Below, piece after piece: positions 2,432-57,016 of a stretch of DNA of 64,000 bases. The first letter of the stretch is position 1. Every line of letters starts with the position of its first letter. The stretch is from contig NC_089275.1 of assembly GCF_963678975.1 (NCBI RefSeq), positions 12,493,682 through 12,557,681 on the forward strand, read 5' to 3'. The position numbers and the translations under genes were made by a program. The DNA is from Dysidea avara. Its lineage: Eukaryota; Porifera; Demospongiae; Dictyoceratida; Dysideidae. Under the pieces are notes generated by a model that was given only the letters and a program-made list of their open reading frames with translations, ran no database searches and was not told where the DNA came from.

Positions 2432-5400
2432 TCATTTTTCTCTTTTGTAAATTCTATCTCTAAGTTCAAGGAAAATTGGTGCTGGTAATATGTGACTGTG
2501 TTCATCAATTAATTTACTGATGGTGTGGTAGCTCTGTTCTTCATATTCACTGTACAAGTGTCTCAGGTTCAGTGACTCATACACCTCCTTCACCTTCTCT
2601 ACACAACCCTCATCTGATCTACCATAGTTAGCCTGGAGGAGAGAACCATACATGACAAATGTGCTGTATAATCACAAATAAAAGGTCAACTGTGCACTCA
2701 ATTTGGCATGTCACTTCAATTCTGTATTGTTAACTCTGTACACACGCTAACAGTGAATTCACAATTTGGCAAAGGAAGGGTCCACCCAGCCCAAGATATA
2801 TAGTGCATACAACAGTGATTGTTAAATAATGAAATTCAAACACGTGATAGGGCAAAATGTGTGTAGAATTGAAAATGTGTAGAATAGACATATAAATGAT
2901 TACAAAGGTACTTAACTACAACTACATGCTCCAATGAAACAGTCACTTGATCTATATATTGTATTACCTCCTATAAAAAGACGGGCTTTTATTTCCTTCC
3001 CAGCATTTTGGCCTGGCCTGTAAACAAATAGGCCCTTTATTTTTGAGACCGGACATTTATTTTGGAGTGACATTCTGAATTAGAGTCGTGGTAGAACATT
3101 ATGTGGATCACAGGTAAAAACATATCCTCTTGTATGATACAGAGTAAGTATATTAAATCATATTAACTGATCTCACCTCTAGTATTGCTCTTTGTTCATC
3201 ACTGGCTCTCTTCAATGCTTGTACTATCAACCAGGTACACTTGTTACCCTGAATGTCTGTACCAACCTTGCCAATAATTTTTGGGTCTCCATAACAATCT
3301 ATAAAGTCATCCTACAGTAGTGCAGTGTAGAATTAGTAGTACACGTGTAAATTATGTGTCATAGCTGGTACAACTTGTACACACTACATACCAGTCATGA
3401 AAATCACTACTGGTATTAATTCCTACATATGTAGATCCCACAAGTAAAGACCAGTACTATGGAATAAGAGTTTTATTGTAGGAGGTAGGGTGTTGATACG
3501 TACCTACATCTGTAGTACGTATCATAATAGTGCAGAATGGCCTGTAGTTTGTATTACACAACTCTAACACACTATGCACACACGGACAAATGCATACATA
3601 CTACAACTACAATACTTTATACCTGGTATTGGTAATATTCTCCGATTGCCAACAAAATGGACAATGCTCCATCATCGGCAGCTTTGTCTTTTATACCAGC
3701 CTATGGTAGGATATGAACCATGAAAAGAGAATAAGTGCTGTACGTGTAAATAAAACAATAAGCAAATAAAATGACTTCACACCTATTCATTTGTACATAT
3801 CACATTCACATACCATGCAAAATGCAGCTGCCACTGGAAAGTAGAAAGAGAAATATCCAGTCTTGTACTTCACAATACTCTTTAGCCTGTCATGAACAAA
3901 TTGGACAGTACATGGAGTAATTTAAATGTCTTAATCTGCTCACCTTTCCTCAGTAAACTGGCTGAGATCATTGTTCTTCTGTGAGAATATTATATCCACA
4001 ATCTCCCCAAATTTAGTATATTCTACAATCTGCAACAGAAATATACACAGTTGTGTATCAACTCTGTTACAGCATACCTCTGGTGTGTTCTCATGTATAC
4101 AAAAACAACAACAACAACAACAACTGTACAAGTAGGGAAATGACCTAGCAAGCTCTTTGGTTCTTCAAATCCCCCCCCCCCTCCCCAACACACACACACA
4201 AAACATACACTGTCTGTATATAGTAGCGGACAAAGTTCTGTTGCATTTACATTGTGTCTTGAAAAATGCTCTAATTATACGATCCTCTGCTAAGCCTACT
4301 GTTGTAGTTTGACGGAGGCAAGCACCACCATGTACCCATTCTATTGCAGCTGCGTTGAGCTTGTGTTGTGTTTGGTGATCCTCTAGTAGTGCCTATAGGC
4401 TACAGCTATAGTATGACCCACACTAAATGACTTAAGTAGCCCTATAGACATATTAAAGCCTTAGCATATTATGCTATACAAAAAGTTTCATAGTGTATGA
4501 TGCTTTGTGTATTGTATAGCTTTCTTGATGTCACGCCTTTGGCAGCAGCTTCTATAGACTTTTCAAGTTTCTTAGTTGGTCACTGAAATTGTTTGTGAAC
4601 AATCTAGAAATACACAGACAAGTAGTTAGTTAAGATTGCTCATCTGGTAGGTGGACCATCACAGCTTTATCCATGACAGTTGGTGAATATCCTCAAAAGC
4701 TACAATGCCAGTTAATCAATTTGTTAGTGCTTACCCTTCTTCCTAACATTCTGTAAACTAGTAAGCCCCAAAAAATTAATGTTTAATGAACAACACAGAC
4801 ACAACGCAAGTATGAATGGTAATGCTTCGCTTAGAGAACACACAATGCATCCCAACACAATGGGAATGTTTTTTTGTTTGCAACTGTATGTTAGTACTAA
4901 TCATACACCTGCTCATACACACACTACGCTCACCATATGGAAGAGTTCTATTAGTTCAATGTAACAAGGATGATGACGAAACTCTGAATTGAGTAGGACA
5001 TAAGCTGATGAGATTAACCAGAAACTATCATTGACTGCTGTCATTCTAATGTGATCCTGTGAGAAAAAACATACACCAGGTAAATATTAAAAAGTGTATA
5101 ATACAATACATGAGAATGAAAGATTCTGCAATTACAATTCAACCAAGCAATTTCTTTGCTACTGCCCTAGCCATTCTATATGCAACAAACAAAAATATTT
5201 GTATGGTGATGTACAAATCATTGCCAACTAGCTACAGTATACAGGAAAATATGGTAACAGCACACACAGAGGTTACAAAACATGCTTGCACTCTACTATC
5301 ACAAGAACATACAGATGTACTAGCTATCTATTAATGTACTACACAAACACACCGACACACATACAAGCAGAGCCTTTGGCTACCATATACGTGGTCATGC

Positions 5401-8400
5401 TTGTGCAGTGAAACACTGGGGCCATCTGTATACTACCAAGAGTTCATAATATATATACTGAGGAGAGTGTCCGACTCTCATGTACCCCTGTAGAAGGGCG
5501 TATTGTGAAGTTATGACGTAGCATTTTTGAGTTTGTCCATTTCTCTTTGTATAAGTAATGATGTCATTAATTGAACATGATATCGATTGAACGTGTGCCT
5601 AACAATGGTGCTAGCAACTGGGCTAACTCAAGCTCTCAGCATTTCTCACCGAACTACAAGCATGTTTTCATGGGTTTAGACAACTATGTAGGCATTTCTT
5701 TCCAGGACATTCGTGAATATGGCATTCCCGAGCATCACGAGTGTAGCGCAGTGCTAACAATTCTTGTGCTTTTATGGCTGCACACATCACAAACCACAAC
5801 ATCTTGTAGTTACATCATAACTTCACGATACGCCCTTCTACAGGGGTATATGAGAGTAGGACACTCTCCTCAGTGTATATATTATGAACTTTTGATACCA
5901 CTCAGGTGCCTACAAGTCAATGATACCCTCCGGGATAGCCTGGTACCCCCCAAAGTAGACTGTACCATCTAACATAATGTGTGGACACCCACACGCGTGC
6001 ATGCACACACACACACTACACCACATACATATATACCTGTTTGTACCAACAAAGTTTATTTCTTCTCATCAAAGACTCGTCCACTATATCATCAGCAACT
6101 AAACTAGCTGCTTGTAGCTACAACAAAGTCACCATTATCAAACAACAACGTAATGATCATTGTGTGCTTACTATTTCAATACACCATCCCAACGTGAAGG
6201 CGAGATGTTTCTCTCTATCAGACAATGTCCCATCACCATAGAGTTGTGACAGTGTAGACACCACCATTAAACCTCTAGTCATCTTCCCTACATAGTAGTA
6301 GTACTCCTTAATAATACACACCACTGTGTACAGTACAATGTGTAGAAAGTCAATGAATCAACGAACTTAGGAGTCCACACAAGTATGTAAAGTTGTATGT
6401 AGTGATCTGTAGGAATACATGTGTAACACAACATACTATGATTTAGGCATTATTTTAAATAGGGCTGGTATGAAGCTTCGAATGTTTCGTACATTTAAAG
6501 GTGAAGTAAACTTCAAATTGTAAAACTATCCTTTGAAGCTTTGTAATGCACTGTACAGGTGTACTATAGCCTAAGAAAGAATCATTTTCTTATTGTAGTT
6601 GCACAATCAATGTTTATCTTGCTTGAACGATATTCGTGTGCTACGCCCAGTTTACCAACATAGTTGAAGCCTTGAAACACCTTATAAAGTGACAAGTACA
6701 CAAAAAAATTTGGAATTTTCAACTAGAGTAGGGACCATAGCACATCGATAAAAAGTACTGAAACAAGTTGGAGTAGTCCATGATATTAAATCACTGTAAA
6801 ACAATAAGAAGTGTTATATCCCTACTGTGCATTTTCGTGTACTTGTTTGTTAACTTTTTGTAAATAATTTTATTATGACTGGTGAACCCACGCATACCGC
6901 ATTTGAAAAGGCACCGCGTGCCCCAGCTATATCAATTATTGTCTGAAAAGTGAAGTATCCATTATGCTTCGTTGTCAGCTATGTTCAACCCGTTACACAG
7001 CATTTCGAATCAAGAACTGTTCAAAAAGCACCTCTACAATCCAGGCATACCAAAAGAAAGAAATCGTGCCGCGCGCCCCAATCATATTAATTATCGTCTG
7101 AAAAGTGAAGTATCCGTTACGCTTCGCTGTAGGCTATGTTCAACCCGTTACACAGCAGTACGAATCAAGAACTGTTTGAAAAGTACCCCTGCAATCGAAA
7201 TAGCCACGATGAAAAATATGGATGATTTCCGATTCAAAGGGAAGCCATCATGTGCTCACACCAAATCGACACCTTTCCCTGTCAGCAAAGATGAATTGGA
7301 CACAAAGCAGGACACTGGTAAGTCCATGAAGAATGCATTGTACGTACTGCGGTATGCCAAAAGGCACCTGTCGGGCCGAAGCGATGTCGAGCAGTGAAAA
7401 AATCAAGCCTGTAGCCTTAGCCGTTATCGAGTTACGCTTGTCTGAAGGCATCAGTGAGTCAGTGAGTCAGTCAGTAGAAAATTCCGTTGAATAAATTATT
7501 TTTAAAATTCCGTAGCAACTTGTTGAAAGTGTTTCGGGTCGATCTGAAAGCTTGTTTGGGCTTAGTTTTACCTCACCAATACTGCTTCATCGTCGTAAGG
7601 GAAAATTGAGGCTGGTTTTTGGGTGATATTATTTCGTGGGCCACGCCTACTCCTTTGTGGTCCCTACTATACAGTTACTATCATACTATATGATAGATAT
7701 ATAATGCATGAAAAACTTCATTTTAGCCATTAGTTGGCATTTACCAATAGACATGATTGCAGCATAGCGTACACGTTCATTTGCAACCAATCAATCGCGT
7801 CATTCAGAACTGCTGCTATGCTTTTTCCAAATACTTACAAACTGATTAGAAAGTTAAAAACTGAAGAAGGATGTGCATAAACACAAGAAAACCTGTAGCT
7901 AACACCGAAGTTCCAAACGTTTGAACATTGTATTAGCGAACATTTGAAGATATTTCAACCTTTGTTTCAGCCCTAATTTCAAAATCAGTTTACTTGGGAG
8001 TTTGGACAGGTAGAAACGAACCTGTGTTTCCAGGGTTTGAACGTTCATTAGCAATAGTTCACAAAGCTTATCACACAGTAAGATGTACATACAGTATGTC
8101 AGTTGAGTCCTTTCTAGTACAATACTACACAGCACATATCATAACAGCCAATGCAAGTGTGTACAAAGAATACAGCATTTAGTAGGGCTACAACGAATGT
8201 CAAATATAATATCCGGATATTTGGATGTCTTAAGTAACAAATACCGAGCTATTTGGTAACATTTTCATTGATGCACATGTGCTACTACATATTGCCACAT
8301 ACATAGCTACTTTCTCTCTGAAAATATGTAGTGGTTGTCTTTATAATCAATTTTACATAGCAAAACAGTCCATCTTAACTATTTGTTGCAGCCCTAGTCT

Positions 8401-10643
8401 CTAGAGACAAATACAGTACTCAGCTTTGCTTCATACTGTACTAGCCTCTGAACACACACACCCTCTCATGCTGTATTTTCTGTACACATGGAATTAGCTT
8501 TAACTATATAACATATTATGTGTACACAAGAGATCTTACCTCCAACAACATTGTACTTGACACACTATAGAGAAACAAATCACAAAATGGTAATACAGGT
8601 TTTACAAGCAATAAATATACATGACATCATACAATTCAAATGAATTGCTAAAATGTTTGCTATACCATTTAGTGTGGGTCAATAACTTATTGTAAGTGGT
8701 TGTGCAAATACTAAGACGGCTTCAGTAAATGGAATAATATGATGTTGCAGTGTTGTGATAATACTATCCACAGCAGAGTAAAACTCACGTAACTAAATAG
8801 AACACACAACCTACGTTTATTGTACCTGCTGCTGTGGTGGATAAAATCCATTCACAATGTAAGTAGATACATTTCCTGTCTGCATTCAAGATGTTCAAAG
8901 ACAATAAAAGCACAGCACTAATTCACTGTCACATCACTGGCCCAAAGGGAAACCAGCCAATGAAATGGAGTCACAGTGTATAGGTATTGGGGAAACAACA
9001 AGCTGCTACAAATTAGCACAATGACTCTTCAGAGCTGCAGCACTCTACCATAGCAGCATGCACTGTTTTAAAGCCCAGCAAAGATCAACCAAACTTGTAC
9101 AGCTTTCCTTAAACAATAGGGAGACAAATAGGTATAACCCATCAAAGGTTATGTCTACCCATGTCCCAAACTATTAGCATATAGCCTAAATATTTCAAGG
9201 GAGAAATTTTTTGCTGATTTCGAGGTTTTAGGGGTTAACAGCAAATATTTTATCCCTGAAATATTGTATTTAGACCTCCATATAGCTTAATAAATTTTGG
9301 GGAGTGTTTGTAAATCTGCGAAAAATTTAAAATAGGTAACATTGCTCAACCTTGAAACTTTTGCCCCTTAAAATATTTAGGCTATATGGTAATTTGAATG
9401 GCTTGACAGACAACAACTTTACTATACAGATATTGACAAAAGCTGATATACCGCTATACCACTGCTTTCCTTCTCTGAAGTGGCACTGTGCTTTAAACAC
9501 ACATTAAAAAGCCTAAGATAACACAATACCATAGCACAGTGCTTAAATAGCTCGTAGTGCTTATAACCCATTGCAAATAACCCATTGCTATCATAGTACC
9601 ATAAGTATGGCAACATGATAGTAACTGCTGTGCTTGTCCAGTTCTGGAACTCAAAATGGCACCTGAAAAACCCATCAATGCAGTCCCTTGTATGGCTTCA
9701 GAGATAGCGCATACTGTTCTAAATTAATAGGATCTATTGTACATTTTTAACCTATGGTTAAATCAGCAAAAATAACATGATGCGTGTACAGCTGTATTGA
9801 TTCTTGGGGAGCGATGGTGTAAAGATCCATGTACTGTATTTACTGTGTGCATAAGCACTAGAGGGGTCTAGGAGCATGTCCTTCCCTCCCACAAGGAATC
9901 TACAGTATTTTGTACTCTTTCAGATTGCTTCTGGTCCATTCTCAGGTATGTACCTGAGAATGACCAGAAGTGGCCTCAGGTTATTATTATTCCTGATGCA
10001 TTCTCAGCTACCGTACCTGCCAAAATACACGTCATGGATTTCATATTTGTTGTTGGTATATCTCAGACTTTAATTTAAAATTTAAGATGCATTACAAACA
10101 GCAATCAGTTATACTTTGCATACTAGTAGTAACACAGTGCCTGCAGGTTACTATTTTTAGCTATACCAGGTGTCACAGAATCTATTTTTAGTATACCAAA
10201 CCACACAATGCCATATATGTAGTCCAGTCAGTTTAAATAAGTAATTAGCTAGTGGACCACACTGCATAGCTCATTACTGCTGTAAACATCTCTATAGCAA
10301 CTACCTTGGAACCTAGATTTTTGGCTTGTTTTCATTGCAATACAAAGGTTTTTAACTAGGCACTCTCAGATATGCTATGCAAGATACATAACCGTACATA
10401 GTGAATCAGTCATACTACACTCACCTCTTCTAAATGATCGTAAGCAATTTTGACACGTGGGTGTGATGTTCTCCTGTTCATCAAGATGGATAACACAGTG
10501 GGGAAGAACTGTATAAATTCCTCTTGGTACTGCTTCATGTACTGTCTTTTTCCCGCTTTATTTTGGTATTTCTCAGAACACCACTGTCCACAGCACTTCC
10601 ATATAACAACAGAAAACGTCGTTATTGCTGTCAGTAGAGGCAT
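2432..10643 (-). CDS. FDPS-like: Farnesyl-diphosphate-synthase family prenyltransferase, copy 1 (10 exons, 378 aa)
   Basis: Isoprenyl diphosphate synthase, expected to condense IPP with allylic diphosphates in the isoprenoid pathway. Exons on the minus strand: 10643-10425, 8564-8540, 6287-6172, 6117-6037, 5056-4934, 4029-3944, 3886-3814, 3700-3623, 3311-3177, 2632-2432, all with GT-AG borders and frame kept to the stop. The start is the ATG opening MPLLTAIT, shared with copy 2. Visible motifs: GGK (residues 81-83) with TRG, for IPP binding; first aspartate motif DDIVD (129-133) followed by [14 protein letters not shown]; second motif DDFID (268-272); then [13 protein letters not shown]-terminal YKREK. 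No signal peptide is visible. The length is close to cytosolic animal FPPS (about 350 aa). Oddity: the fourth and fifth positions before DDIVD, normally Phe-Phe in animal FPPS, are Ala124-Ser125, which in the known family predicts products longer than C15. It lies head to head with copy 2. Confidence 0.93.
5441..5890. mobile_element. Palindromic MITE in FPPS copy 1 intron 4
   Basis: AGTTCATAATATATATACTG at 5441 and its inverted counterpart ending ATTATGAACT at 5890; the inner arms GGAGAGTGTCC and GTAGAAGGGCGTAT are also inverted. 450 bp. The 133-codon open stretch at 5571-5972 overlaps it and is not a gene. Confidence 0.72.
6460..7975. mobile_element. hAT-like element in FPPS copy 1 intron 2, hosting a nested insertion
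   Basis: Ends TAGGGCTGGTATGAAGCTTC (6460) and the inverted CAGCCCTA (to 7975). The flanks ATTTTAAA and ATTTCAAA form an 8-bp target duplication with one mismatch. TAGGGCTG ends plus 8-bp duplications indicate a non-autonomous hAT-like element. The interior 6729-7666 is a different repeat. Confidence 0.55.
6729..7666. mobile_element. Dispersed repeat with TAGGGACCA ends (nested)
   Basis: Starts TAGGGACCA and ends TGGTCCCTA. It holds an internal direct duplication: GTATCCATTATGCTTCGTTG (6955) resembles GTATCCGTTACGCTTCGCTG (7111), each followed by a GTTCAACCCGTTACACAGCA-type stretch. It also has a short GTGAGTCA microrepeat (about 7453). Related sequence is at 920-1240 and, inverted, at 40260-40520. 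The long open stretch 6972-7397 inside it resembles no known protein and is not called a gene. Confidence 0.55.
8183..8396. mobile_element. hAT-like MITE with TAGGGCTRCAACGAAT-type ends
   Basis: Starts TAGGGCTACAACGAATGTCA and ends TTTGTTGCAGCCCTA. The flanks (GCATTTAG, GTCTCTAG) match only partly, so it is old. Similar ends are found on the 25431-25720 element. Confidence 0.55.
9182..9384. mobile_element. Short MITE with TAGCCTAAATATTT ends and TA flanks
   Basis: Inverted ends TAGCCTAAATATTT and AAATATTTAGGCTA flanked by TA on both sides, as for Tc1/mariner-type MITEs. An eroded relative lies at about 16720-16860 and a fragment at about 15395-15440. Confidence 0.65.
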
Positions 10644-10949
10644 AGCGAGCGTTTCAATCGAAGTCTGAAACAGTGATCAATGTATTCTAACTAAAGCACT
10701 CCTCTTGATATCACTTGTTCTCATTATATACGCGTTACAGTAGCATGAAACACCATATCTCATAGAAATTTAAAATAAAATCACTGCTAATTACTACCAC
10801 AACCACTGATAACCCCGAGCACAACCCACCTGACAACCTACTCGTCTAATAAACGCCTCTACTTAATTCTTAAAAATTCTTATAATAAATACAATCGGCG
10901 CGTTTATTGAAGTTCTTCCTAATCTCGCGCCCTTCCATCTCGTACGTCT

Positions 10950-11063
10950 GCTCAAAGTCGTTGAGGCTGCTCAAAGTCGTTGAGGCTGCTCAAAGTCGTT
11001 GAGGCTGCTCAAAGTCGTTGAGGCTGCTCAAAGTCGTTGAGGCTGCTCAAAGTCGTTGAGGCT
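10950..11063 (+). repeat. Six-copy 19-bp tandem array upstream of FPPS copy 1
   Basis: Unit GCTCAAAGTCGTTGAGGCT, six copies without visible divergence. The core CTCAAAGTCGTTGAG has inverted half-sites CTCAA/TTGAG. It starts 307 bp before the copy 1 start codon. Confidence 0.95.
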
Positions 11064-11837
11064 CCTCAGTTTGTCGTATCCATGCCTATATAGACTGCAG
11101 TCGCCACTGCCAGCATGTTGCCAGGGGGTTGAGTCATCGCTGTGTTTCCTCAGTGCATCTATGTCCGGCAGAAAACTGAGGAGCTAGTCAGTTTGACAAC
11201 TGCAACTGAAGGTGATGTAGCAGGTGTGTGTCTCATAATGTAGCAAGTAATGTAGGTGATGTGATGTGTCTGGTGATGTAGCAAGTATGTGTGTTTGTAC
11301 CCTGAGTTGTATCAGCCACACAATGGTTGTCTAGATTTTTCTCAGCAATCAGAAAATCCATGCAAGCCAGCTTGGTGTAAGGAGTTCTAGGCCTTGCCAG
11401 ACAAACCTATGATTCTACAGCTCGTTACAGACAGTCACTATACCGTTATGAGATTTAAGTACATGTGTGTGACAATGAGCATATTGAAATTAGCCATTGG
11501 GATTGCGAACCTAATAAAATTTATGGAATAATAGGAGTGTCTATATCCACCGGTATACCGATGTTAATAAGAACCACCCACTAGCTATTGACACCGGTGT
11601 GTATGCCCCAAGCATTCGACTTTAGGGCACGTGTCTAGTTCCCTGAGTATTCGACTTTACGGGAAGCGTCTAGTAGTTGCCCCTAGCATTCGACTTTAGG
11701 GGATGCGAAAAGTAGTGTTAACGTTAGGGTTAGGGTCGGGTTCAGCTTTGGTTCCTTGTTCTTTAATAATATAGTACACCCTTGTGGTTTGCTACTATAG
11801 TTGCATTTATAATGTAGAAAACAAAGGAAGGTGGTAG

Positions 11838-14900: not shown

Positions 14901-15525
14901 AGCTTTTACTATGAAATGACTCACAATTTAATGCATGATATATAGTATACTTGAAGTTCAGTAAAAAATTGCTATACCTGCATGCAAATTCAATCTCAGA
15001 AGGAAATAGTAAAATAATTGTTTGTTTTTTTCTGTGGGGGCTTGTTCCTAAGACCCTCTAGATATATAGAGCATCATGAGCATGCATGCTAGTCTGTAGC
15101 TATACTGAGTGTGCTTCACACACTATGTGCAGCTATGATGATGATGATGTCTTGTTTTATTAAGACAATAACATACCACATAAGTACAGTATGTACTGAT
15201 ACCCACATGTAGGATCATGGTCATTATACAGGAGCCCTATCATCAACTATAGTTAGCTACCACTTTTCTTATAGCTAGCTATAATTTTTTATCCTGTTAG
15301 CATTCCAGGATGAAATTTTATCCTGTTACCCTGTTATCATTCCATTCTAGGGGTGGGGGGTTATCAGGTTTATCACTTCTTCGAGATAATATTACCATAG
15401 CATAGCTGCAAATTTGGAAGGGGGAAATTTTCGCGGTTTGAACAATCCGCGAAGAAACACGGACATCCGCTTTCTTATGGATATAATGCGAATTGTGTGA
15501 AAAGGGCGAGATCGACCGCAGTATC

Positions 15526-18500
15526 ATGCCTTTACTAACAGCCATCACTGCCGTGTCTGGTGCCCTCTGGCGCTTACTGGGATACAGTAGTCATGGAGAC
15601 TGGAAAAGAAAGATCGTCGCGAAGGAATACGACACGGAGTTCGTGCAATATTTCAACAACATTCTGGCGTTGTTGGAAGGTAGGAAGGTCACCACTCCCC
15701 GACTGAAGATTGCATATGATCATCTGGCAGAGGTGAGTAGTGTTTTAATGCTATACAAAATTCTAACTAGCTTAACTACCAAACTAAGCACTTTAACTAC
15801 AAAACTAGAACAGCTGCATTACAACACATGATGGGACGGGCTTGCGAAGAGCTGCCCCGAGTATATGCAGCCACACCGGCTAAGCTAGGGCACTCGCAAG
15901 TTGGGCACTCGACATAGTTGCCAACATTGGATGACTAAATAAATTCTCTGTTTCAACTGAGGCACAAGTGCACGATGCGGGCGAGCGTTCCATTTCCATT
16001 GCGGCTAGCAATTTTCAAGCCCTAACACAACCACAGCAAACTGTATAAAAGCATGCATGATTAAGCTTGTGCCTTCAACTTTTAAGTTACATGAATAACA
16101 CAAAAGTGAATTTGTGTTGACTTGAAAGCTACTGACATGTGAGCTAGACACCGTTGCAAGGTCACATTTACTGAGCCCACATACTAGCGATGCAAAAGAA
16201 ACGCCTAAAAATAATGGCCTGGAGAATATTGTAACATTTTAGTGCTAGTGCTGACAGTAAACAGATGCAGCAGGTGGTGGATGGGATCAGAGAATTTATT
16301 TGGAGTGACCTTGTCTCTCGGTGCCAACAAGACTACTATCATCAATTATTACACATAGTAATTATATGTAGGTAGTTATAGGCACTTGCTGGTTCCATGT
16401 GTACTGTATATCTTGTGAGTGTAAACCATGTGTATATACTGGCTTCTTTTTGTCTTTTTTAGTCACTGAAATACAACCTGCTAACAAGTGAGTAGCTGTC
16501 TGTGTTGTTTATAGTGTGTAGCTGTATGATGTTCATTGTGTGGCTTGTAGTTGATGATTACAGTTAAACGCTTTTCAGACTATTCAGTCGCTTTTGTTTT
16601 TATCAGACATATCCACCTCAAGAAGTTTGAATGTAAATAAAACTATATAATTTAGATACAGTTGCCAGTTATGTATGTTACCTCCTTTACAAGGATGTGC
16701 AAATAGTCATCCAACTAGGCAGTAGGTTTTGGGGGTTAACAGCAAAACTATTATCCTTAATATTTAGACCTCCATATTATACATTTGGATTATTTGCAAA
16801 TCTAAATTTTTACATTTCTCAACCTCAAAAATATTCCCCCTCAAAATACTTAAGCTATATAGTAACCTTATAATATATGTCTATAAAAGGCAACTGTCTT
16901 TAGTAATTAGCTGACTAATGGATACTAATGTGTAGTAAAAGCTTATTGTACAGTAATGACAACCAAGTAATCCAGTTGAGTTGTCACATGTATGTACATG
17001 ACATGTGCAGAAACTGAATGAAACATCACAATGATATTATGGCATGTGTATTTGTAATTATTTTCTGCCTACCAATTGTACATAAAAGTTCTGGGAAATT
17101 TCCTGTGTCTTTTACCTCACCCTCTATTGTTTCTAATGTGTGGTAATAATGTTGGTAATGTTGTTATAGCAAGGGAGATGACCAGGGGTCTTATGGTGGT
17201 CAACACATTATCACAATTATATGGATACCGGACATTGTCATCTAAAGAGAAACGCCTTGCCTTCACTCTAGGATGGTGTATTGAAATTGTGAGTCTCTAT
17301 ATTCTATGTACATAGTCTGTTCCAATCCTAATTGTTAAAACTTTGCATACACACAGGTAGAAGCAGCAAACACAATAGCTGATGATATTGTGGACCATCG
17401 TGACACTAGAGCAGCTAAGCCTTGCTGGTACAAACAAGTACGGAAGATAATTCATCTAATGTGTTGATGATGTACATGTGATAACTTCTTACAGGATCAT
17501 GTTGGAATGATAGCAGTCAATGACAGTTTCTGGTTCCTATCATCGGTCTATGTCCTACTTAATGCAGAGTTTAGGGACCATCCTTATTATACTAATCTAG
17601 TGGAACTGTTCCATCTGGTTAGTTAATATACAACTTCATTGTTATAAATATATGTATGTCATCAATTGTCTACCGATCTACTACAGTAGTTATAGTGTGT
17701 TTATACATGCGTCCTACATAATATATTACAATGATCACTTATGTAACAACATTTCAAAATAGACAAATACATGTATTTGATTTTGTGAACTGTAAAGGCT
17801 GGGAAATTTATTACATAAGGAAATTCAATAGTTGCATATTCAGTTTACCTAATTGCTACAAACTGTTACAGGTTGTGGAGTACTCTGAGATTGGTGGAAT
17901 AGTGAGCTCCCTCATCTCTGACAGTAAGACTGATCTGAGCAACTTCACAGCAGAAAAGTGAGATAAGATTTTCAGCATAGCTGCTTTATGTATTTCTTTT
18001 TCCAGCCTTCAAAACATCACTCGTTACAAGACTGGATATTTCTGCTTCTATCTGCCAGTGATGGCCACACTATACTTGGTATGTACTATATGTAGTGTAG
18101 GTAGTGACACTTGTCTGATGTTGTTGTTGTGTACAGGCTGGTATTGATGGGAAGACTGTTAATGACGAAGTATTGTCTATTTCACTGGCTATCGGTGAAT
18201 TCTATCAGAACCAGGTATGTGGTATGTAGTATGCAATATGAGTATTATGCTTTCAATGACTGTACACACAGTGCACTTCCCATTCACTTTTGCTCCCGGA
18301 TTACTAAATTACTAATCTACTTGCATTAGTGATTTTTTAGTTACTTGTACACCAGTGTTATAGCGGTCGGTCTTAATTTGTCTGGGTCATTCTCACTTAT
18401 TAAAAAATACCCAGGATTGGATCACATGTGATCGAGATGAATTACAGTAATTAGTTGATGATGATGTGGAAGTGTATAGTCTAGTTGTGCTGCAGTCCAG

Positions 18501-20816
18501 CTTCTTTCATGAGCCACACCCATTATGTGCTATTGTCTGTATGCATGCATGATGCCACGCCCATTTATCAATAAGTACATTGCAGTTTGTAGGTACGTAC
18601 AAATCCATGGCTATTACTGTTGCAGGCTTATGTGGAGCCATGCCCATTAATTGATTTTTACCGTATGAGTTGTCTTGCAGCCGCCAGTTTCTTGAAATTC
18701 ATTCATGTACGCGCCCACTTGTAGGAAATGTGTAATGCTGTTTGTAGGCATACGTGGAGCCATGCTAGTTTATTAGTAGGGTGTATTAAAGTTGCATGAA
18801 GCCACACCCAAACATGTTTTGCTCTCCGTAAACAAACATGTATACTATCTATAAACTTTTGTGGACTCATGCTCACTGACTGACTATTAATCATAAAACT
18901 TGCTCATTTAGTTATCAGCACTGTTGTACAGATCTATTAGATCAGGGATGTGTCCACAGTGGTTGAGAGTGGTCAGTACCGACCACCACTCAAATAAATT
19001 AGCCACCACTACCACTCAACAACCATTACAAATTCATTTCTGACATACACAAGTTAAGGCCCCATACAACATTTCTTGACTCATCCCTGTCTCTTGTAGC
19101 CACCGCTATTCCAAACCTGGGCACATCCCTGATCTACATACAAATAATTTTGGAGGGTGTTATGTCACTGGTTTATAATCACAATGCAGGACTGGAATAC
19201 TAGATGGCCTAAAGAAAACAACTCTCTTTACATACTGTATATAGAAAGATAAACAAATTAATCTTATCACAGATGTGGTGGGTCAGTATGTGCTATGACA
19301 AACTCAAAAATAAATGTAAATCATATGATCTCTTTGAAATAGAGTTAATATGGCTGTAGGCTCCTAAATTTTGTGCAAGCAGTAATAGATGCTTAGCAAA
19401 CAGGGGGGAAATAGAGGTCGCTTACTATATTTCAAATCCCTTCACTCTTAAGATCAAGATATTCTAATAGAGCAGTCATATGTACTCTAATGTAACAGTC
19501 AGTTGCAACTGACATTTTTATTTACTTTTTGACCTGCTGGGTACTAGTAGAGGGCAAGCAGCCCATGAAACATATTCTATGACTTTGTATGATGTAAAGA
19601 ACTACTAAACTCAAGACTTGCATACTCCATGAGTTGCCAATCATGTAGCCAAGCATTGCTTTGCACTAAGTACTATTCTGTATGTGTGCGCGTGTGTGTA
19701 TGAGTGGACACAGATATTAGTAATTGTCACTGTTACAGATTGACTACAATAGATGTTATGGAACCCTGGATGTTGCCAGTGTAGACATAAAGGCCAAGAA
19801 GTGTACCTGGTTGATAGTAGAGGCAGTGAGAAGAGCTGATACTAAACAGAGAGCAATACTAGAGGTAACTGCTTTGTAGTACTTTGGAGTGTTTTGTTGT
19901 ATGTATATCTATAGACTGTTATGTCCTTCTTAAATAAGTAGCAGCCATCTTTGCTGACTGAATTTCGTTCCATTTTTGTGCAACTACTCAAGCATTTAGC
20001 TGTGTTACGGTAGAACTTCTGTATCCTGGGCCAGGGCTCTTAATGTATGTGCATACAAGTGGGACCATGATGACCTGATTATCAGTGTGTCCTTTGATGA
20101 GCCTTGCTGCATCTCTTGAACAGTGATTAGATAGCTATGCTAACTGTCCTTAACTGAAATAGCTATGTAGCCTTCCTTAGTCATTCTTTTCAAGTTCCGG
20201 TGATTTATTCTGATTTCAAATTGTCTCAGCATCAATTCCTACCTTCTGCTAGTCACAAGTAGCATTCCAGGTCATGATTAACTGCTTCTTGATTGCAACT
20301 CCGGCATACATTAAACTAGTAAAAGCATAGTCTGTGTATACATAAACTATAACACTGTGGTGGTGTGGTCTCAAACCAAATATAGCACTCAGCTTTACCT
20401 TGTGTTATTGTTGGTCTCTCTACCATGCCCTCGTACTATATTTTCCATGTTGCACTCGCTGTGGTGCTTTAACTAGTATATAAAATGTTTCATAAAATTA
20501 TCACCAACTGTCTAGAAGAGATTGGTTCACCTTTACTTTTGATCAATGCTGCCATACCTATTCACCACAAAATTGGTATATACTTGTGTTAATGTACTCT
20601 CTCTCCCTCCTCCAGGCTAACTATGGTAGATCAGATGAGGGTTGTGTAGAGAAGGTGAAGGAGGTGTATGAGTCACTGAACCTGAGACACTTGTACAGTG
20701 AATATGAAGATCAGAGCTACCAGACCATTAGTAAACTAATTGATGAACACAGTCACTTATTACCAGTACATGTCTTCCTGGAGATGAGGGATACCATCTA
20801 CACAAGGAAACACTAG
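15526..20816 (+). CDS. FPPS-like paralog with altered active site, copy 2 (10 exons, 372 aa)
   Basis: Exons: 15526-15732, 16463-16487, 17170-17288, 17357-17437, 17495-17617, 17872-17957, 18006-18078, 18137-18214, 19739-19864, 20616-20816. Every exon matches copy 1 in phase, and in length except exons 1, 3 and 9. The frame is open throughout and all splice sites are GT-AG, so it looks expressed. The first aspartate motif DDIVD (126-130), YKTGYF and the Gln before the second motif are kept. Lost: GGK becomes TTRE (77-80 region); the Arg-Arg after the first motif becomes Arg-Ala; the second motif DDxxD becomes IDYNR (265-269); the loop after it is 3 residues shorter and lacks the GK-GTD lysine. 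Normal FPPS activity is therefore unlikely. A one-substrate enzyme (terpene-synthase-like, as evolved from FPPS in insects) or a regulatory pseudoenzyme are both possible. An in-frame upstream ATG at 15493 would add 11 residues; 15526 is preferred because copy 1 starts there. Confidence 0.9.
16720..16862. mobile_element. Eroded relative of the 9182 MITE, in FPPS copy 2 intron 2
   Basis: Shares GTTTTGGGGGTTAACAGCAAA, TATTTAGACCTCCATAT and CCCCTCAAAATACTTAAGCTATAT-like sequence with 9225-9384. Confidence 0.55.
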
Positions 20817-22983: not shown

Positions 22984-25290
22984 TCGTGTGACCACAGAAG
23001 TCAGTATGCGTATATACTACAAGTAGTGTTACTAGGTAAATTGTACGCACTGTCGAATTGAATACCAGGTGGTTAACAGGTAATTGAGATAATTGTGTAG
23101 TTGACTTAGAACATGCTCTGTTCATGTTGAAGCACACATAATTGTAGTAGCAATAGAGTCAAATACTCTAATAGAACAACCATTTTGATTAGTGAAATAG
23201 AATACCAGATAACTGGCGAATGGACAACTAAGGTTCAACTATATCATATGTATACTAACAAGTACAAGTGGCTTGTTGTATTGTGGACAAATTTGCAAAG
23301 ATGATTACAACAGCACTGATACATAAAATGACATTGATGTTGGTTGTTTGCTTATTTCTAGTAGAGGTTGCTGATCTATAACCTCCTTCAGATCACCATA
23401 ACAATCCAAAGTTGTCCTATTGATCCCAACTTAATAGGAACAAAACGTATGGAATAAAACACAAAAGTATGCCTGTAAGTACAATACAAGTTGTAGTGTA
23501 TACGTGCATGCAGCACTGATACAACATACAGAGTTTGAATGATATGAAAGACCAAATATCAGGACTTGTAACAAATTGTTTATCACATAGATCCTTACCA
23601 TGTATATATAGCAACTCTGACTGGTAGATAGAAGGAGTAATAAGATGTCTTGAATTGTTTATCACAATAGATTGTTTATCATAATAGCCTGGTATCTGTG
23701 TAGAGGGGATTTTATGGCATCCGTTTAATACACTGTATGCATAGTACATACATTACATACCTTTTAGTACATACCTTACATACCTGGCCTTTTATACAAA
23801 GGTGTGGAGAGCAACTCACATAGTTGGGATCATTCTCTTTATAAGACGTTCATTCATGTCATAAAATACAGTACCCCAAAATTAAGTTCATTTGTTAATT
23901 CTCTGATGAAGATTGCATTGTCAAAACACACAACATCATTATTGGTATGTGACTTTCTCCTAAGACAATCATAGCAAATGATAATACTAATCACATATAC
24001 TACATAACATGTATCCCACAGTGATTGATATTTTGTCATTGATTGATTACCCACTATACTCCGATCTTCATCCTCCCGAAATCTGCATTTGATCAAAGGA
24101 CAAGCATATTTTGTAAAGTGTACACCAAGTTAATTTTAGCATAACAACTTGAACATGAAATATGTTAGAATCTGGCCAAAAGTGATGTGTGTTTTCAGCT
24201 ACTATTCACTTTATTGCACCATTATCATTCTGAACATCATTTTGAAAAGTCAGAATTGTGAACTTGAAGCCAGCGATCCTGGGAGGATGCTGTCCAGCAG
24301 AGAATCTGTTCACTCTTCTTTGTCAGTGACAAGGACATGCACATTAACTTTGTGTCTTGTAATGTCTTGTTTTAAACGATTGATGGCAGGTGGTACAAAT
24401 AAATGGTGGTGGTGCCATCATGAGCTGGATCAAGTCCTTTATTACTAAAAGATCTCCATTTTTTCAGCAAAGTCAAGGATTAACTTTTCAATTTGACCAC
24501 TATGACCGACGACGAAGATTTGTGTTTTCAATTTGATCACTATGACCGAGGACGAAGACCAGAGTGTAGGAGGAGTACCATCCCCTTTCGGATGTATCCA
24601 TTCACTGGCATAGACTGGACTACTAAACTCAAGTTTTTGAGTGTGTGCTATATATATAGCCACAGAAATGTTTTAGAAATTAATGCCATTCACCATTAGA
24701 TATAAAACGTATACGTTACTCACAAAAACTACACAAAGCCTCTGCAGTTTGTTATCGAAAATGATTTGCCTACTGCTACAACACTACTAATGCATCTGTC
24801 TCCCTCTTTCTCTGATATAGCACACAATGATATAAAATTCAGAACATGATGTAACATAGAACGATAATAGCATCATCTGTAGCCTTTCAGTGGCCTATGT
24901 ATTAACTACAGATTTGCCAACTGTTCAGTTTATAATGCTTATAAATATCAGTAAGTGCATTAACCATTAGCCAGAGAAACGCTTCCCAATGCATACAGCA
25001 GGTAACTTTTTGAAAAGAACTACATTCAGTGTGCACAAAGAGATCAAACCATTCACTACGAACTCACACTGCTAAATAGACCGCTAAAACTTAGTTGCAT
25101 GTCTCTCTAATATGCAAGAAAAACTATTGCACGAGGAGCCAAAGCGTTATATAGATACAGTATTAAATATATAAATTTATAATGGTTGAAAAGGATGTGT
25201 GGGCAAATTTTATCCAGTCCAGTGAATGAATACACCCTAACACATTTCACTACTTTTAATAATTCAATTATACTTCACGTGTTTGGCATG
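22984..25290. other. Intergenic sequence without a recognised gene
   Basis: Only a possible FPPS exon 9 relic on the minus strand (about 23375-23418) and a 33-bp tandem duplication at 24485-24560 (TTTCAATTTGA(C/T)CACTATGAC) stand out. Open stretches here resemble no known protein. Confidence 0.5.
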
Positions 25291-33043: not shown

Positions 33044-34281
33044 ATGTTTTCTGTTAATGTAAAGGAGGAACCTGTTCGAGCATTTGTTAAAGGCAAAGAT
33101 GTGTTTGGTATTTTGCCAACTAGGTATGGCAAATCAGTGATTTATGCTATTCTACCATTACTGTTTGATTTTATGTTTCTTGAAATTTTTGTGCAATGTA
33201 TCTAAATATGTTGTTTAATGTTAACGAAGGTTGTGCTGGTAGTATCGTTGTTGTCATTACACCATTAATTGCTTTGATGGTGGACCAAAAGAAGAACTTT
33301 GCACATACTGGAGTCTCAGTAGAATTTGTTGGGAAAGCACAAGATGATAAAGGGGAAGTACAATTAGTGTATATAAGCCTGGAGAATATCTTAAACAATC
33401 GAAGATTTCGTGATATGTTGCAGAAAAGCAACTACCAGCAGAGACTAGTGGCAGTTGTAGTGGACGAAGCTCACTGTGTTCAGATGTGGTAAGAACAAGG
33501 TGTGATTGACTCTTAATATCAATTTTTTATGTGCAGGGTTGAAAAATTTCGGAAAGCTTTCTTCAAAATAGGATCTCTAAGAAGCTTGGTACCTAAATCT
33601 CTCAATGTAATGGCACTTACTGCTACAGCCACTGAGCAGACTGTTGCCACAGTGAAGAAGCAGCTGGCCATGGATGATCCCATTATGGTTGGCTTGAATT
33701 TGGAAAGATCAAACATTAAATAATTTGTAAAGCCGTCTATAACTCTAGAAGAGTTCACAACTACCATTGCCAGTGAACTTATCTCTAGTCATGTAAACAC
33801 ACCAAAGACTGTGATTTTTTGCCAATCGCTCGTAGAATGTACTGAAGTATTTTCCATGGTAAAAGTCAAACTTGGCCATGAGGTATCTGGACCTCCAGGA
33901 TTTGAACATATTGTTGAACTGAGACTTTTGACATCATTTACAGCAGTATCAAGTAATGAACATAGGGAATCGATTATCGATGAATTCAGTAAGATGGATT
34001 CCATTCTCAGGGTGGTAATTGCCAGCAGTGCGTTTGGGATGGGAGTTAACATTCCAGACACTTTCCGAGTAATTAATTGGGGACTACCACTGACACTGGA
34101 GGATCTGGTGCAACAAACAGGGAGAGCCGGAAGAAATGGAATTCCAGTTGATCCTATACTTTACAGTAACAGTTCATGTAATTCCACCAAACTAATTAAG
34201 GATTATGCAGCAAACACTGTTTATTGTCGTAGGTATTTATTATTTCATTTTTTTTGTTTAGCAAAGACAAGCAGTTTATAA
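33044..34281 (+). pseudogene. RecQ-type superfamily 2 helicase carried by the transposon
   Basis: Superfamily 2 DNA helicase of RecQ type. Segments in order: a Walker A region reading LPTRYGKS (usual form LPTGYGKS) at about 33122; VVITPLIALMVDQ (motif Ia region); the Walker B box DEAHC at about 33464; ALTATAT (motif III) at about 33610; and, about 420 bp on, SAFGMGVNIP and QQTGRAGRNG (motifs V and VI). The segments lie in more than one frame with a stop between them. The gap near 33493-33536 ends in TGCAG and could be an intron, but the others look like decay. No RQC or HRDC domain is visible. It sits between transposon ends and converges on the DUF6589-type gene, so it probably served transposition and is not a host RecQ. 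Confidence 0.75.
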
Positions 34282-34483
34282 CTGGCTGTCGATGTGTAAT
34301 AATTTGTGAAACATAATAACTTAATGGCATTAAATTACAAAATTTCAAGTTTCAATATTTTACTTTTTACCCACTCACTGATTTTCTCCCACTTTAGGGA
34401 TGTGAGAAATGGTTGTTTATTATACATCTTTATTCTACGTCCCACTTGTTTGCTGAACACCTTTTCATCAATGAGAACAGCAG

Positions 34484-37400
34484 TCATTTTTCCAAATCTT
34501 TTGCAAAGGAAGGGTGAGATGAGAAGGGTTTTGCAACCGCTATACCATTTTCAGCTTCAATTGTTTTACAAATTTGTGATACCACCCCTAATAACTTGGC
34601 TGCCCTGTCTACTGAAGAACCTTTTGTATTGGATCCCATATTACGTAACATGGACTTCAGAATCCCATTCAAGTGTTCCACATGGAGGTCACACGGAATA
34701 TTACACCCAGTCCTTCCACTGGTGTTTACAGTGCGATTCCACTTTAACTCGGTGGCCTTATGTTCAGACAGGTACAAAATCTGTGCCAAAAGCAAGAATG
34801 CTTCTTTTGCACAGTTATAGCGACCTTGTTGTTGAAACACAGGTAGCAGCAGCTTCCAGTATAGGACAATCCTGTCACCATCCCTCACTGCATCGTGAAA
34901 GCCATGCCATACAAGGCACATTGTAAGCAAATCAGTTAAACCTGCGGTCATTTACAGGTGAAGGCTGTGTTCCATCAGATGGCATGATATTGACAAAATA
35001 CAGTACAGCTCAAAGGTAACGTCGCGAGTATACACATGTGAGTAATGCTCGCATCTTCTCGCGGGATCATTCTTTTGCAATGTACTGTACAATACCTGTG
35101 GAATATCGCGTGGATATGCACTAGCCACACGAGAAACTCGCCACACATGAGAACACTCACTACTGAGTTTAGTAAATTCATACAACACTTAAATCACATA
35201 AACATTTGTGATCGGTCCCATAATTATGTTCATGCAAGCCTAGCTAGCTAATTATACAGTAGAATGCAATAAACGCACGCCTGGGCCCGCAGAGCGCAAT
35301 GGGTGAATATTTACGAAAACGAAAAAAAAATCTGTAAATTCTAAAGCACTTGTTTCACTATGAAAAAGTGATAACACCAAAAACCTTGGCAGCATCGTGA
35401 TCCCAAAAGCAAGAGGAGTTCCAAAATCTTTGTTTCATATCAGTACTCTCAAGGAGACAGAAGATATCAGCGTTAGTCTGCCTTGCATTAGACGAGCGGT
35501 TCACTGTCGCTTTTTCTCACATTCGTTTGCCTTCACCAAACCCCCGTGAATGTAGGAAAGGCCTGGAAGACAAAACGTACCCAGCAATGGATTTGCTTGT
35601 TCATGGAGAATTCGATGGTGCAATTGGTAGAGGACTGCATCCGTATGTTATGATCGTTTTATTAAACGCCTGTAGTTTATTGTCACTGTACAAATCGATT
35701 TTTTGCTGTAAGCACTTCGTAGTGCTGTAACTTCAAAATTTCTTGGCTTCTAGAGTTGAAACTTCGGTTGACCATTCCTTTAACCATCTAGATAAAGAAA
35801 ATGCGAATTAGAAAAATGCACTAACTGGGGTTCTGTGGCATTACTTGGCGACCAATCCATCTAGGTTTACGGTAGCTACCAACACTGACTGCATGTAGTC
35901 TGTGACAGAGTCAAGGTCAAGTCAGTAGCTAAGTTACCAAGTATTCGGTAGCTACAACACGGGCATTGCAATAGGAGACTTCACAGCTGGCGGAACTGAG
36001 CCAGTGCCGCCTCCCAAGACCATAGGTGAGACCTGTTATCTGGTCTTGCGTGATGTTCTTGAGTAAAGTTAGCTATTGTGAAGTATTACTGCATCCTTGC
36101 TGCATTCACACGGTTCACTCGAGCGCATGTCATGCGTGTACATGCGACGTTACCCGTGAGCTGTACTGTAGCTTACAATCTGCCCAGCAATTGCATTGCA
36201 GTTTTCAATTGTATTTCCAGCTGTCTCTAGCTGCTTGGCTGCTGCTACATGGGCGCACATGACAACAGTAAGAAAATCTTCAGTAGGTTTCATGTTGTTC
36301 TTCGGATTACCCCAACAGCAGTTTGGTTAACCAAGTGCTTGAGCTGGTTTAGTGCACCTCTCTCATGTGATTAAATACTAAAAAACCTCTCCCAAATCAC
36401 CTAAATGGTAAAAGTATAAAAATTATTTTGACCGGTGGTACAGACATACCTGCACCAGGCACATCCTAGCATGCCAATCGGCTTTGGTAGGTACAAATCC
36501 TGCGAGTCTTTCTAATCACTTCTTCTCTGGCTCTCATAGCACTGCCGCTCCCCGAGCTCTAGCAACCGTAAGCTGGTCACCAAAAAATAGCAGTTGGTAC
36601 AACCGAGAGCTGTCATAGGTATGTTCACGTCCATTCACATTAATTGTAGTAACAGATTCCTCCACTGGTACGTACTTGTTAAAACTTTTCATAATTTGAG
36701 ACATGTCAACAATGTATGCTTCATTCTTGAACTCCACACCTAATGGGACTGATAAATACATGCTCATTATTAGCAATAACATTAATAGCAATACTTACCA
36801 CTACAGACTTTGCAGCCATTTCTTTCTGATGTTTTGAAGGAATATACCAAGTAACTTTCTTCACCTGGTTACTAAATCTCTTCACATTCTGCACTAAAAC
36901 CCTGCAATAATCATAGCAAGAATACATCAAAATATAAGTATATATTTACCTTGATATTAAAACACTTTAAACTCCTCTAAAATTTTTGAAATATCCCTTC
37001 TGGTCAATAAAAACAGCTCAGGTAAAATCACTGCTGAAGCCGGTTTATCAGATAGGGAGGATACATCCACACGATTATTCACAGCATATGAATGAAAAAT
37101 GAGATTTGGTCTGTCTATCTTCCCTTTGATGGCTTGGACGAAAGTTTTTGTCAAGATTATCCCCAACTAGGACAAATCCTCGACAATTCAATGTTGATGA
37201 CTCTTGACCTTTCTGTGTTGTACTGATGGTTTGATTTGCATCTATGCACAGCAAGGAAAAGCCCCAAAATTATAAATTTGTAAGAAAAAGTCAAACCTGC
37301 TGTTACAGAACCTGCTGTTACAGAACCTGCTGTTACAGAACCTGCTGTTACAGTGGCTGTTGTAGTATCAGCTCTCACTAAACCTTGAACAATAACATTG

Positions 37401-50090: not shown

Positions 50091-50207
50091 TATACTCCAA
50101 TGAAACAGTCAGTCACAACTTTTATTTACTTTTCGACCTGCTGGGTCAGTAGAGGGCAAACAGTCCATGGAACATATTATATTGTATGGTATAAAGAACT
50201 ACTAAAT

Positions 50208-56951: not shown

Positions 56952-57016
56952 TACTGGAGAACAGATCTATATCTAAGAATCTAAACAAAGAATACTTTAC
57001 GATAGGTAAAGAGAAC

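What the first reader, a model, noticed from the sequence alone, without database searches (positions are those of the whole stretch)
15526..20816. An open FPPS paralog that lost GGK and the second DDxxD but kept the first: candidate FPPS-derived terpene-synthase-like enzyme
All ten exons are open and splice correctly, yet the IPP-binding GGK, one of two Arg after the first motif, the second aspartate motif (DDFID to IDYNR) and the GK-GTD lysine loop are all changed. The DDIVD motif that holds the allylic diphosphate is kept. Loss of IPP binding with retention of allylic binding is the pattern expected when an FPPS turns into a one-substrate enzyme; insect terpene synthases arose this way. A pseudoenzyme is the main alternative.
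Basis: partly seen in the sequence, partly recalled or inferred. Interest (0 to 1): 0.88.

Follow-up and report, generated by a model that had tools for sequence, protein, structure and literature searches.

The report
Maintained but altered FPP-synthase gene copy
An animal genome seems to carry a well-preserved copy of the gene for a basic terpene-building enzyme in which key parts of the reaction site have changed, next to a sister copy that looks intact; the altered copy may have become a terpene-making enzyme or a helper protein, and only a laboratory test can tell.

Summary
Window 15526..20816 (+) encodes a 372-aa FPPS-type protein in ten exons, 9 of 9 introns GT-AG. GGK, the second Arg after DDIVD, the second Asp motif and the GK-GTD loop are changed; DDIVD is kept. 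The window also holds an intact, divergently oriented paralog (copy 1, 10643..2432) and a 5'-truncated one (copy 3, exons 6-10). Copy 2 is unlikely to be a pseudogene: against copy 3 its exons differ at 21/564 sites without indel, introns and flanks at 340/2322 with 63 gap events. Of 21 catalytic positions copy 2 has lost 8 and copy 1 none. The losses hit the IPP site (5 of 8) but also the Mg-B ligand and K257 needed for ionisation, and enrichment at the IPP site is not robust (p 0.05 to 0.36 by list). A one-substrate terpene-synthase-like enzyme is possible (0.38), not demonstrated; a non-catalytic partner fits nearly as well (0.35). Copy 1 shares AASLVADDI with a long-chain avian FPPS mutant, which predicts products of C20 or longer. 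Organism unnamed; no expression, ortholog or assay data.

The parts
15526..20816 (+). Copy 2, the finding: 10-exon FPPS-derived gene, 372 aa, IPP site and second Asp motif altered, DDIVD kept
   Evidence: spliced and translated; homology; alignment
16463..17190 (+). Exon 2 and start of exon 3 of copy 2: GGK replaced by TTRE; acceptor at 17169/17170, four bases upstream of the position that matches copy 1's acceptor
   Evidence: that the older acceptor would put a stop in frame is read from the sequence
17357..17437 (+). Exon 4 of copy 2: DDIVD kept, R112 kept, R113 to A; A-N in place of the Phe pair before the motif
19739..19864 (+). Exon 9 of copy 2: IDYNR where copy 1 has DDFID; three codons fewer in the GK-GTD loop, shared with copy 3
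15351..15650 (.). CpG-rich block at the 5' end of copy 2 (o/e 1.18; 1.27 at -150..+150, 98.1st percentile; 0.79, 87th percentile, in a 600-bp frame; window median 0.32)
   Evidence: tenth of the 30 blocks listed there
2432..10643 (-). Copy 1: 10-exon FPPS paralog, 378 aa, open, the 21 listed catalytic residues kept; AAS before DDIVD as in the avian chain-length mutant
   Evidence: mutant and wild-type avian letters printed
10651..10950 (.). CpG-rich block just upstream of copy 1's ATG (o/e 1.47; 0.79, 87th percentile, at -150..+150)
47696..52079 (+). Copy 3: exons 6-10 only, open; homology to copy 2 starts inside intron 5 (about 47637); VDYNR and the same three-codon gap
23604..23657 (-). Possible exon-7 scrap of a fourth copy (QFKTSYYSFYLPVRVAIY)
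   Evidence: tblastn E 0.016 with avian, 0.055 with human FPPS, 0.25 with copy 2, 0.52 with copy 1; no neighbouring exon found there

Best explanation
Copy 2 arose by duplication of an FPPS-type gene that already had a deep pocket, the ancestor of copies 1 and 2. Shown from sequence: it has changed 5 of 8 listed residues of the IPP site (G55, G56, K57, Q96, R113) and, in the metal half, the Mg-B aspartate D243, D247 and K257; it keeps DDxxD, R112, K200 and T201; and its exons have stayed open and little changed since it split from copy 3. Inferred: it no longer condenses IPP efficiently and works on one allylic diphosphate, perhaps C15 to C25, held by Mg-A/Mg-C on DDIVD, which it ionises or slowly releases to give an acyclic or simple cyclic terpene or prenyl alcohol, as insect and fungal IDS-derived terpene synthases do. 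The lost Mg-B site makes this last step uncertain.
For: Open ten-exon gene. 8 of 21 listed catalytic positions changed in copy 2, 0 of 21 in copy 1, 5 of the 8 in the IPP site. In PcIDS1 even K133R, the K57R change, lowered stability with DMAPP and IPP (PMC10396970 passages). Constraint: copy 2 against copy 3 exons 21/564, no indel; introns and flanks 340/2322, 63 gap events, Fisher 6e-15. Codon model with copies 2 and 3 pooled rejects omega 1 at p=0.0345; copy 2 omega 0.14. CpG-rich 5' end. Copies 2 and 3 share the altered second motif and the three-codon gap. Precedents: in termite GGPPS-like proteins, which include active terpene synthases, only FARM and IGM 3 are conserved (PMC13143122 section 2.8); LlTPS2 has 9 of 15 IPP-motif residues substituted (PMC12376265 passages).
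Against: D243 to I, D247 to R, K257 missing: in PcIDS1 D319A prevents Mg-B coordination. No NSE/DTE-like motif in its place; the fungal IDS-like terpene synthases listed in PMC7484799 Table 1 all begin that motif with N or D, and LlTPS2 has both Asp motifs conserved. R60, E93 and R351 are kept. Enrichment of change at the IPP site depends on the list (p 0.0497, 0.16, 0.36). Copy 2 alone does not reject omega 1 (p=0.20); without exon 10 the pooled test gives p=0.063. No expression or ortholog data.
Confidence: 0.38

Rival explanations
1. Maintained pseudoenzyme: copy 2 may bind allylic diphosphate but does not turn it over, and acts as partner or regulator, for instance in a heterodimer with copy 1 that sets product length, as non-catalytic subunits of heteromeric prenyl synthases do.
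For: Mg-B ligand and K257 lost while 61% identity to copy 1 remains; constraint; heteromeric prenyl synthases with a regulatory subunit are known (HexA/HexB, PMC7839719 passages; DPPS subunit 2 without Asp motifs, PMC10960109 passages); termite FPPS-like EneoA, with both motifs disrupted, showed no activity (PMC13143122 section 2.2).
Against: FARM, R112 and K200 are all kept, which a pure scaffold need not keep; DPPS subunit 2 lacks both motifs; no evidence of heterodimerisation.
Confidence: 0.35
2. Pseudogene or dying duplicate, open only by luck or by gene conversion from a working copy.
For: Faster change than copy 1 at vertebrate-conserved sites, 38 against 13, p=0.0006; several core motifs hit; a truncated sibling nearby that is also open; conversion signs in exon 10 and intron 7.
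Against: No stop or frameshift over 371 aligned codons at NG86 dS 1.13 from copy 1; exons about four times less diverged than introns and no indel in 564 nt, a chance of about 2e-7 if indels fell as in introns and flanks; CpG-rich 5' end, whereas the 5' edge of copy 3 has o/e 0.10.
Confidence: 0.13
3. Still a prenyl-coupling enzyme with altered chemistry: weak IPP use through R60/R351 (and R in place of K57), or coupling of the allylic cation to another acceptor.
For: R60, E93 and R351 kept; mealybug transIDS5 mutants D308N and D312N of the second motif still did the first coupling to C10 at comparable levels (passage cut there), and transIDS11 with NDYYD has regular activity (PMC10960109 passages).
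Against: Q96E, R113A, K57 to R or E and loss of the GG turn together; mealybug transIDS10 (NDYCD) and transIDS12 (NDGVAL) were inactive; in the six mealybug FPPS-like rows that I saw of seven the motif begins with N, here with I.
Confidence: 0.09

Closest known systems
Animal farnesyl diphosphate synthase (Pfam PF00348; avian 1FPS, human 4KPD)
   Same: Homology over residues 31-371, FARM kept, exon phases shared with intact copy 1
   Different: GGK, R113, Q96, the second DDxxD and K257 altered; Phe pair before FARM replaced by A-N
Insect IDS-derived terpene synthases (PsTPS1, MhTPS, LlTPS1/2; termite EneoC/EneoE/NtGGPPS6; Heliconius ocimene synthase)
   Same: Born by IDS duplication; FARM kept and IPP-binding motifs substituted, as described for the sandfly and termite proteins
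   Different: LlTPS2 keeps the second Asp motif, here IDYNR; R60 kept here; no product known; organism unnamed
Blattodean FPPS-like proteins (EneoA, PMC13143122) and mealybug FPPS-like proteins (PMC10960109)
   Same: FPPS duplicates with a degenerate second motif
   Different: The Blattodean ones have both motifs disrupted and EneoA showed no activity; the mealybug ones keep FARM, and the six rows I saw begin the second motif with N
Avian FPPS F112A/F113S mutant (1UBV/1UBW/1UBY; that these entries are this mutant is recalled and fits the letters)
   Same: Copy 1 shares AASLVADDI letter for letter; copy 2 has AANTIADDI
   Different: An engineered change there, natural here; product length of copy 1 not measured
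Sponge type I terpene synthases (Wilson 2023, doi 10.1073/pnas.2220934120; not held; seen only as a citation)
   Same: Possibly the same kind of animal (a guess, untested)
   Different: Could not be compared; a citing paper calls them phylogenetically distinct sponge terpene cyclases

Membership tests
trans-Isoprenyl diphosphate synthase / FPPS | PF00348 domain over the catalytic core | tested here: met
   130 bits, residues 66-326; PDB hits
trans-Isoprenyl diphosphate synthase / FPPS | First Asp motif DDxxD with R112 | tested here: met
   DDIVD and the following TR kept
trans-Isoprenyl diphosphate synthase / FPPS | Second Asp motif DDxxD (Mg-B) | tested here: not met
   IDYNR; copy 1 has DDFID
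trans-Isoprenyl diphosphate synthase / FPPS | IPP-binding K57, R60, R113 | tested here: not met
   K57 is R (or E), R113 is A, R60 kept
IDS-derived terpene synthase (insect kind) | Origin by duplication of an IDS gene with shared exon structure | tested here: met
   10 exons with the same phases (from exon lengths), paralog with its ATG 4.9 kb away
IDS-derived terpene synthase (insect kind) | FARM kept, IPP-binding motifs substituted | tested here: met
   FARM kept, 5 of 8 listed IPP-site residues changed; the published 15-residue list itself was not available, and enrichment over other conserved sites is not robust
IDS-derived terpene synthase (insect kind) | Second Asp motif able to bind Mg-B | tested here: not met
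   D243 to I; [quoted passage not shown]
IDS-derived terpene synthase (insect kind) | Terpene product from GPP, FPP or GGPP | not testable with these tools
   needs enzyme assay
Canonical class I terpene synthase | Terpene-synthase Pfam family and NSE/DTE motif | tested here: not met
   only PF00348 at E up to 0.001; no N/DDxxS/TxxxD/E at the IDYNRCYGT position (sequence)
Non-catalytic IDS subunit (plant SSU, DPPS subunit 2 kind) | Asp motifs lost | tested here: inconclusive
   one lost, one kept
Non-catalytic IDS subunit (plant SSU, DPPS subunit 2 kind) | Heterodimer with a catalytic paralog | not testable with these tools
   an intact paralog exists; binding unknown
Pseudogene | Stops or frameshifts | tested here: not met
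   none in 372 codons
Pseudogene | Loss of constraint | tested here: inconclusive
   exon/intron contrast speaks against it; copy 2 omega 0.14 but p=0.20 alone, pooled p=0.0345, 0.063 without exon 10

The most novel reading that the evidence does not exclude
A small two-gene terpene locus born from FPPS in an animal: copy 1 is a natural long-chain version of FPPS (A-S before DDIVD) that makes C20-C25 or longer diphosphates, and copy 2, beside it, is a terpene synthase that ionises them with a metal site on the first Asp motif alone, without the Mg-B aspartate of known enzymes.
Probability: 0.16. Interest if true: 0.8.

Novelty: new variant of a known kind. Interest (0 to 1): 0.5.

Why it matters
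If copy 2 makes terpenes, the FPPS-to-terpene-synthase route would have a case that has lost the second Asp motif, and a natural pair (intact deep-pocket synthase plus altered partner) on which each step can be tested by assay. If it is a pseudoenzyme, it is a clear case of a kept but catalytically altered prenyl synthase in an animal, of the kind reported from cockroaches and termites.

Tried and rejected
Wilson 2023 is not held. Searches around sponge terpene synthases listed 15 of 22, 2 of 2, 20 of 43, 15 of 60, 15 of 47, 2 of 2 and 15 of 386 papers; no listed title or abstract start describes an FPPS-derived one. The unlisted papers and papers outside the library were not seen.

Considered and rejected: that the gene is an artefact of splicing guesses (copies 1 and 2 share exon phases by their exon lengths, copy 3 shares exons 6-10, GT-AG throughout); that copy 3 is the second haplotype of copy 2 (introns and flanks differ by about 15% and copy 3 lacks exons 1-5); canonical terpene synthase. 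Structure prediction and fold search were not run: the tool states that it accepts proteins which the DNA gives letter for letter, and a ten-exon product is not contiguous; I did not test that rule.

Rows left out and choices made: the 21 catalytic positions were listed after seeing and leave out 171 (E in copy 1, G in copy 2), D174 (D; S), 204 (F; F), Y207 (Y; Y), 239 (Y; Y) and 352 (E; K). With the wider lists the IPP set is 5 of 10 (p=0.16) and the allylic set 4 of 14 (p=1.0); with six direct contacts the IPP set is 3 of 6 (p=0.36). Because the p=0.0497 of my first list did not survive these choices, I lowered the leading reading from 0.40 to 0.38, raised the pseudoenzyme from 0.33 to 0.35 and lowered the novel case from 0.17 to 0.16. 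Synonymous divergence of copies 2/3 (0.089) is lower than intron 9 divergence (K 0.17), so some gene conversion between them is likely and the exon/intron contrast may overstate constraint; intron 7 differs at only 1 of 52 sites. The YN00 estimate failed for copies 2/3. In one search the 600-bp frames round both 5' ends and the -150..+150 frame of copy 1 were only at the 87th to 92nd percentile, and many other CpG-rich blocks lie in introns or repeats, so the CpG argument is moderate.
Full report
What is there. The finding's coordinates are exactly the coding span of a ten-exon gene, ATG at 15526 to stop at 20816, nine GT-AG introns, 372 aa. It is an animal-type FPPS relative: phmmer against the PDB gives avian FPPS at E 5.6e-77 over residues 31-371, and Pfam gives only polyprenyl_synt, 130 bits. 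I call it copy 2. A tblastn of copy 2 on the window and exon-by-exon reading show two further copies. Copy 1 runs on the minus strand from 10643 to 2432, ten exons with the same phases (from the lengths), 378 aa, open. Copy 3 at 47696..52079 has exons 6-10 only, all open; its homology to copy 2 begins inside intron 5, near 47637, and no significant match to exons 1-5 lies between copy 2 and copy 3 (the 25-nt exon 2 would escape such a search). Copies 1 and 2 are 61% identical (227 of 371), copies 2 and 3 94% (176 of 187). Copies 1 and 2 point away from each other, with 4.9 kb between their ATGs.

What changed. Against copy 1, human and avian FPPS, copy 2 has lost the GG turn and K57 (GGK to TTRE; K57 aligns to R, or to E if the gap is moved), has Q96E, R113A, D243I, D247R and D174S, and lacks K257 through a three-codon gap; D103, D104, D107, R112, K200, T201, Q240, D244, D261, K266, R60, E93 and R351 are kept. 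Roles of the main residues come from the PcIDS1 crystal paper (PMC10396970, passages), whose numbering is the human number plus 76 at the positions compared: K133, R136 and R189 bind IPP; Q172, E169, F315 and R427 order that site; R188 meets the allylic diphosphate; D179 and D183 hold Mg-A and Mg-C; D319 holds Mg-B; K333 sits between the allylic diphosphate and D319. The roles of G55, G56, D104, D174, K200, T201, Q240, D244, D247, D261 and K266 are recalled. Of 135 columns where copy 1, human and avian agree, copy 2 differs at 40. Listed IPP-site residues: 5 of 8 changed; allylic/metal residues: 3 of 13. Copy 1 keeps all 21. Of 108 columns where copy 2, human and avian agree, copy 1 differs at 13, none of the 21. 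IPP site against all other conserved columns: p=0.0497 with these 8, 0.16 with a wider list of 10, 0.36 with six direct contacts; IPP against allylic p=0.16; allylic against others p=0.75. So copy 2 has plainly lost catalytic residues that copy 1 keeps, but a loss confined to the IPP side is not shown, and the ionising side is hit too.

How GGK went. Copy 1 exon 2 ends GTTGTTGGAG and exon 3 starts GGAAGATG; copy 2 exon 2 ends CTGCTAACAA and exon 3 starts CAAGGGAGATG. Read side by side, copy 2 lacks one A and uses an AG four bases upstream, so that the frame is kept with one codon more. This is my reading of the sequence; junction reads would prove it.

Is it alive? Copies 2 and 3 share IDYNR/VDYNR and the three-codon gap, so these losses most simply predate their split, although conversion could have copied them. 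Their exons differ by 21 of 564 sites with no indel, their introns and flanks by 340 of 2322 with 63 gap events (Fisher 6e-15). A three-branch codon model on 187 codons gives omega 0.14 for copy 2 and 0.68 for copy 3; the pooled pair rejects 1 at p=0.0345, copy 2 alone does not (p=0.20), and without exon 10 the pooled test gives p=0.063. By parsimony copy 2 has 3 nonsynonymous and 5 synonymous changes, copy 3 has 8 and 4, with one ambiguous. Copy 2's 5' end lies in a CpG-rich block (o/e 1.27 at -150..+150, 98.1st percentile of 300-bp windows; window median 0.32), but over 600 bp only 0.79, 87th percentile. Copy 1 has a block just upstream (10651-10950, o/e 1.47), with 0.79 at -150..+150; copy 3's edge has 0.10. 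In a CpG-depleted genome this suggests a used promoter, a moderate inference since other blocks lie in introns and repeats. Copy 2 changes faster than copy 1 at vertebrate-conserved sites, 38 against 13, p=0.0006, as expected for a changed task or weaker constraint. Gene conversion tempers these numbers: the first 80 nt of exon 10 are identical between copies 1 and 2 while the intron before it is unlike, and synonymous divergence of copies 2 and 3 (0.089) is about half that of intron 9 (0.17).

The deep pocket. The fifth and fourth residues before DDxxD, Phe-Phe in wild-type avian and human FPPS, are A-S in copy 1 and A-N in copy 2. Copy 1 shares AASLVADDI with the avian sequence of 1UBV/1UBW/1UBY, where wild-type 1FPS has AFFLVADDI; I recall those entries as the F112A/F113S mutant. 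[quoted passage not shown] Copy 1 is thus predicted to be a longer-chain synthase and copy 2 to have room for a long allylic substrate. Neither is shown.

How it most likely works, and rivals. Insect terpene synthases arose by IDS duplication and substitution of IPP-binding residues; the sandfly LlTPS keeps 3 of 15 and LlTPS2 has 9 of 15 substituted, with both Asp motifs conserved in LlTPS2 (PMC10962984 and PMC12376265 passages). In termite GGPPS-like proteins, some of them active terpene synthases, only FARM and IGM 3 are conserved, whereas FPPS-like EneoA, with both motifs disrupted, showed no activity (PMC13143122 sections 2.8 and 2.2). Mealybugs have seven FPPS-like sequences with a canonical FARM but not second motif; of the rows I saw one is active in regular coupling and two are not (PMC10960109 passages). 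Fungal IDS-like terpene synthases keep N or D at the start of the second motif (PMC7484799 Table 1). Copy 2, with FARM kept and second motif and IPP site altered, lies between these cases. I rank a one-substrate allylic enzyme first (0.38), a maintained non-catalytic partner or regulator second (0.35), a dying gene third (0.13) and altered coupling last (0.09). The weak point of the first is the missing Mg-B ligand; no NSE-type motif replaces it.

Limits. No orthologs were found in the collections open to me with the peptide patterns used. No structure model was made. Wilson 2023 on sponge terpene synthases is not held, so it is unknown whether those enzymes are related to copy 2. Papers were seen as passages or named sections only, none in whole.

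Noticed in passing
window 6117..6037 (-), exon 4 of copy 1: Copy 1 carries AASLVADDI, the same letters as the avian long-chain mutant; a natural long-chain FPPS candidate.
   Followed up: partly
window 20616..20755 (+) and 2632..2493 (-): First 80 nt of exon 10 identical between copies 1 and 2 (4 differences in the first 140) while the 40 nt of intron before it differ at 23 sites: likely gene conversion.
   Followed up: partly
window 47696..52079: Copy 3 lacks exons 1-5 yet its exons 6-10 are open and little diverged; either truncated recently or homogenised by conversion.
   Followed up: partly
window 23604..23657 (-): 18-residue stretch like FPPS exon 7, possible relic of a fourth copy.
   Followed up: partly
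window 15526..15600 (+) and 10643..10560 (-): Both copies share a hydrophobic N-terminal extension starting MPLLTAIT ahead of the FPPS core; may be a targeting signal.
   Followed up: no
window 58101..61406: Large tandem array, about 107 copies of a 31-bp unit, also reported with a 247-bp period, 13.3 copies.
   Followed up: no
window 33724..34951 and 56586..56966: Mobile-element-like pieces: helicase C-terminal domain, DUF6589 and a THAP domain (3 of the 10 ORFs given had a hit).
   Followed up: no
window 10948..11068: 19-bp tandem repeat, 6.4 copies, 99% matches, just upstream of copy 1's CpG-rich block.
   Followed up: no
window 50101..50400: CpG-rich block (o/e 1.36) inside intron 8 of copy 3, mostly in a stretch without a long blastn match in copy 2's shorter intron; perhaps an insertion.
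   Followed up: no
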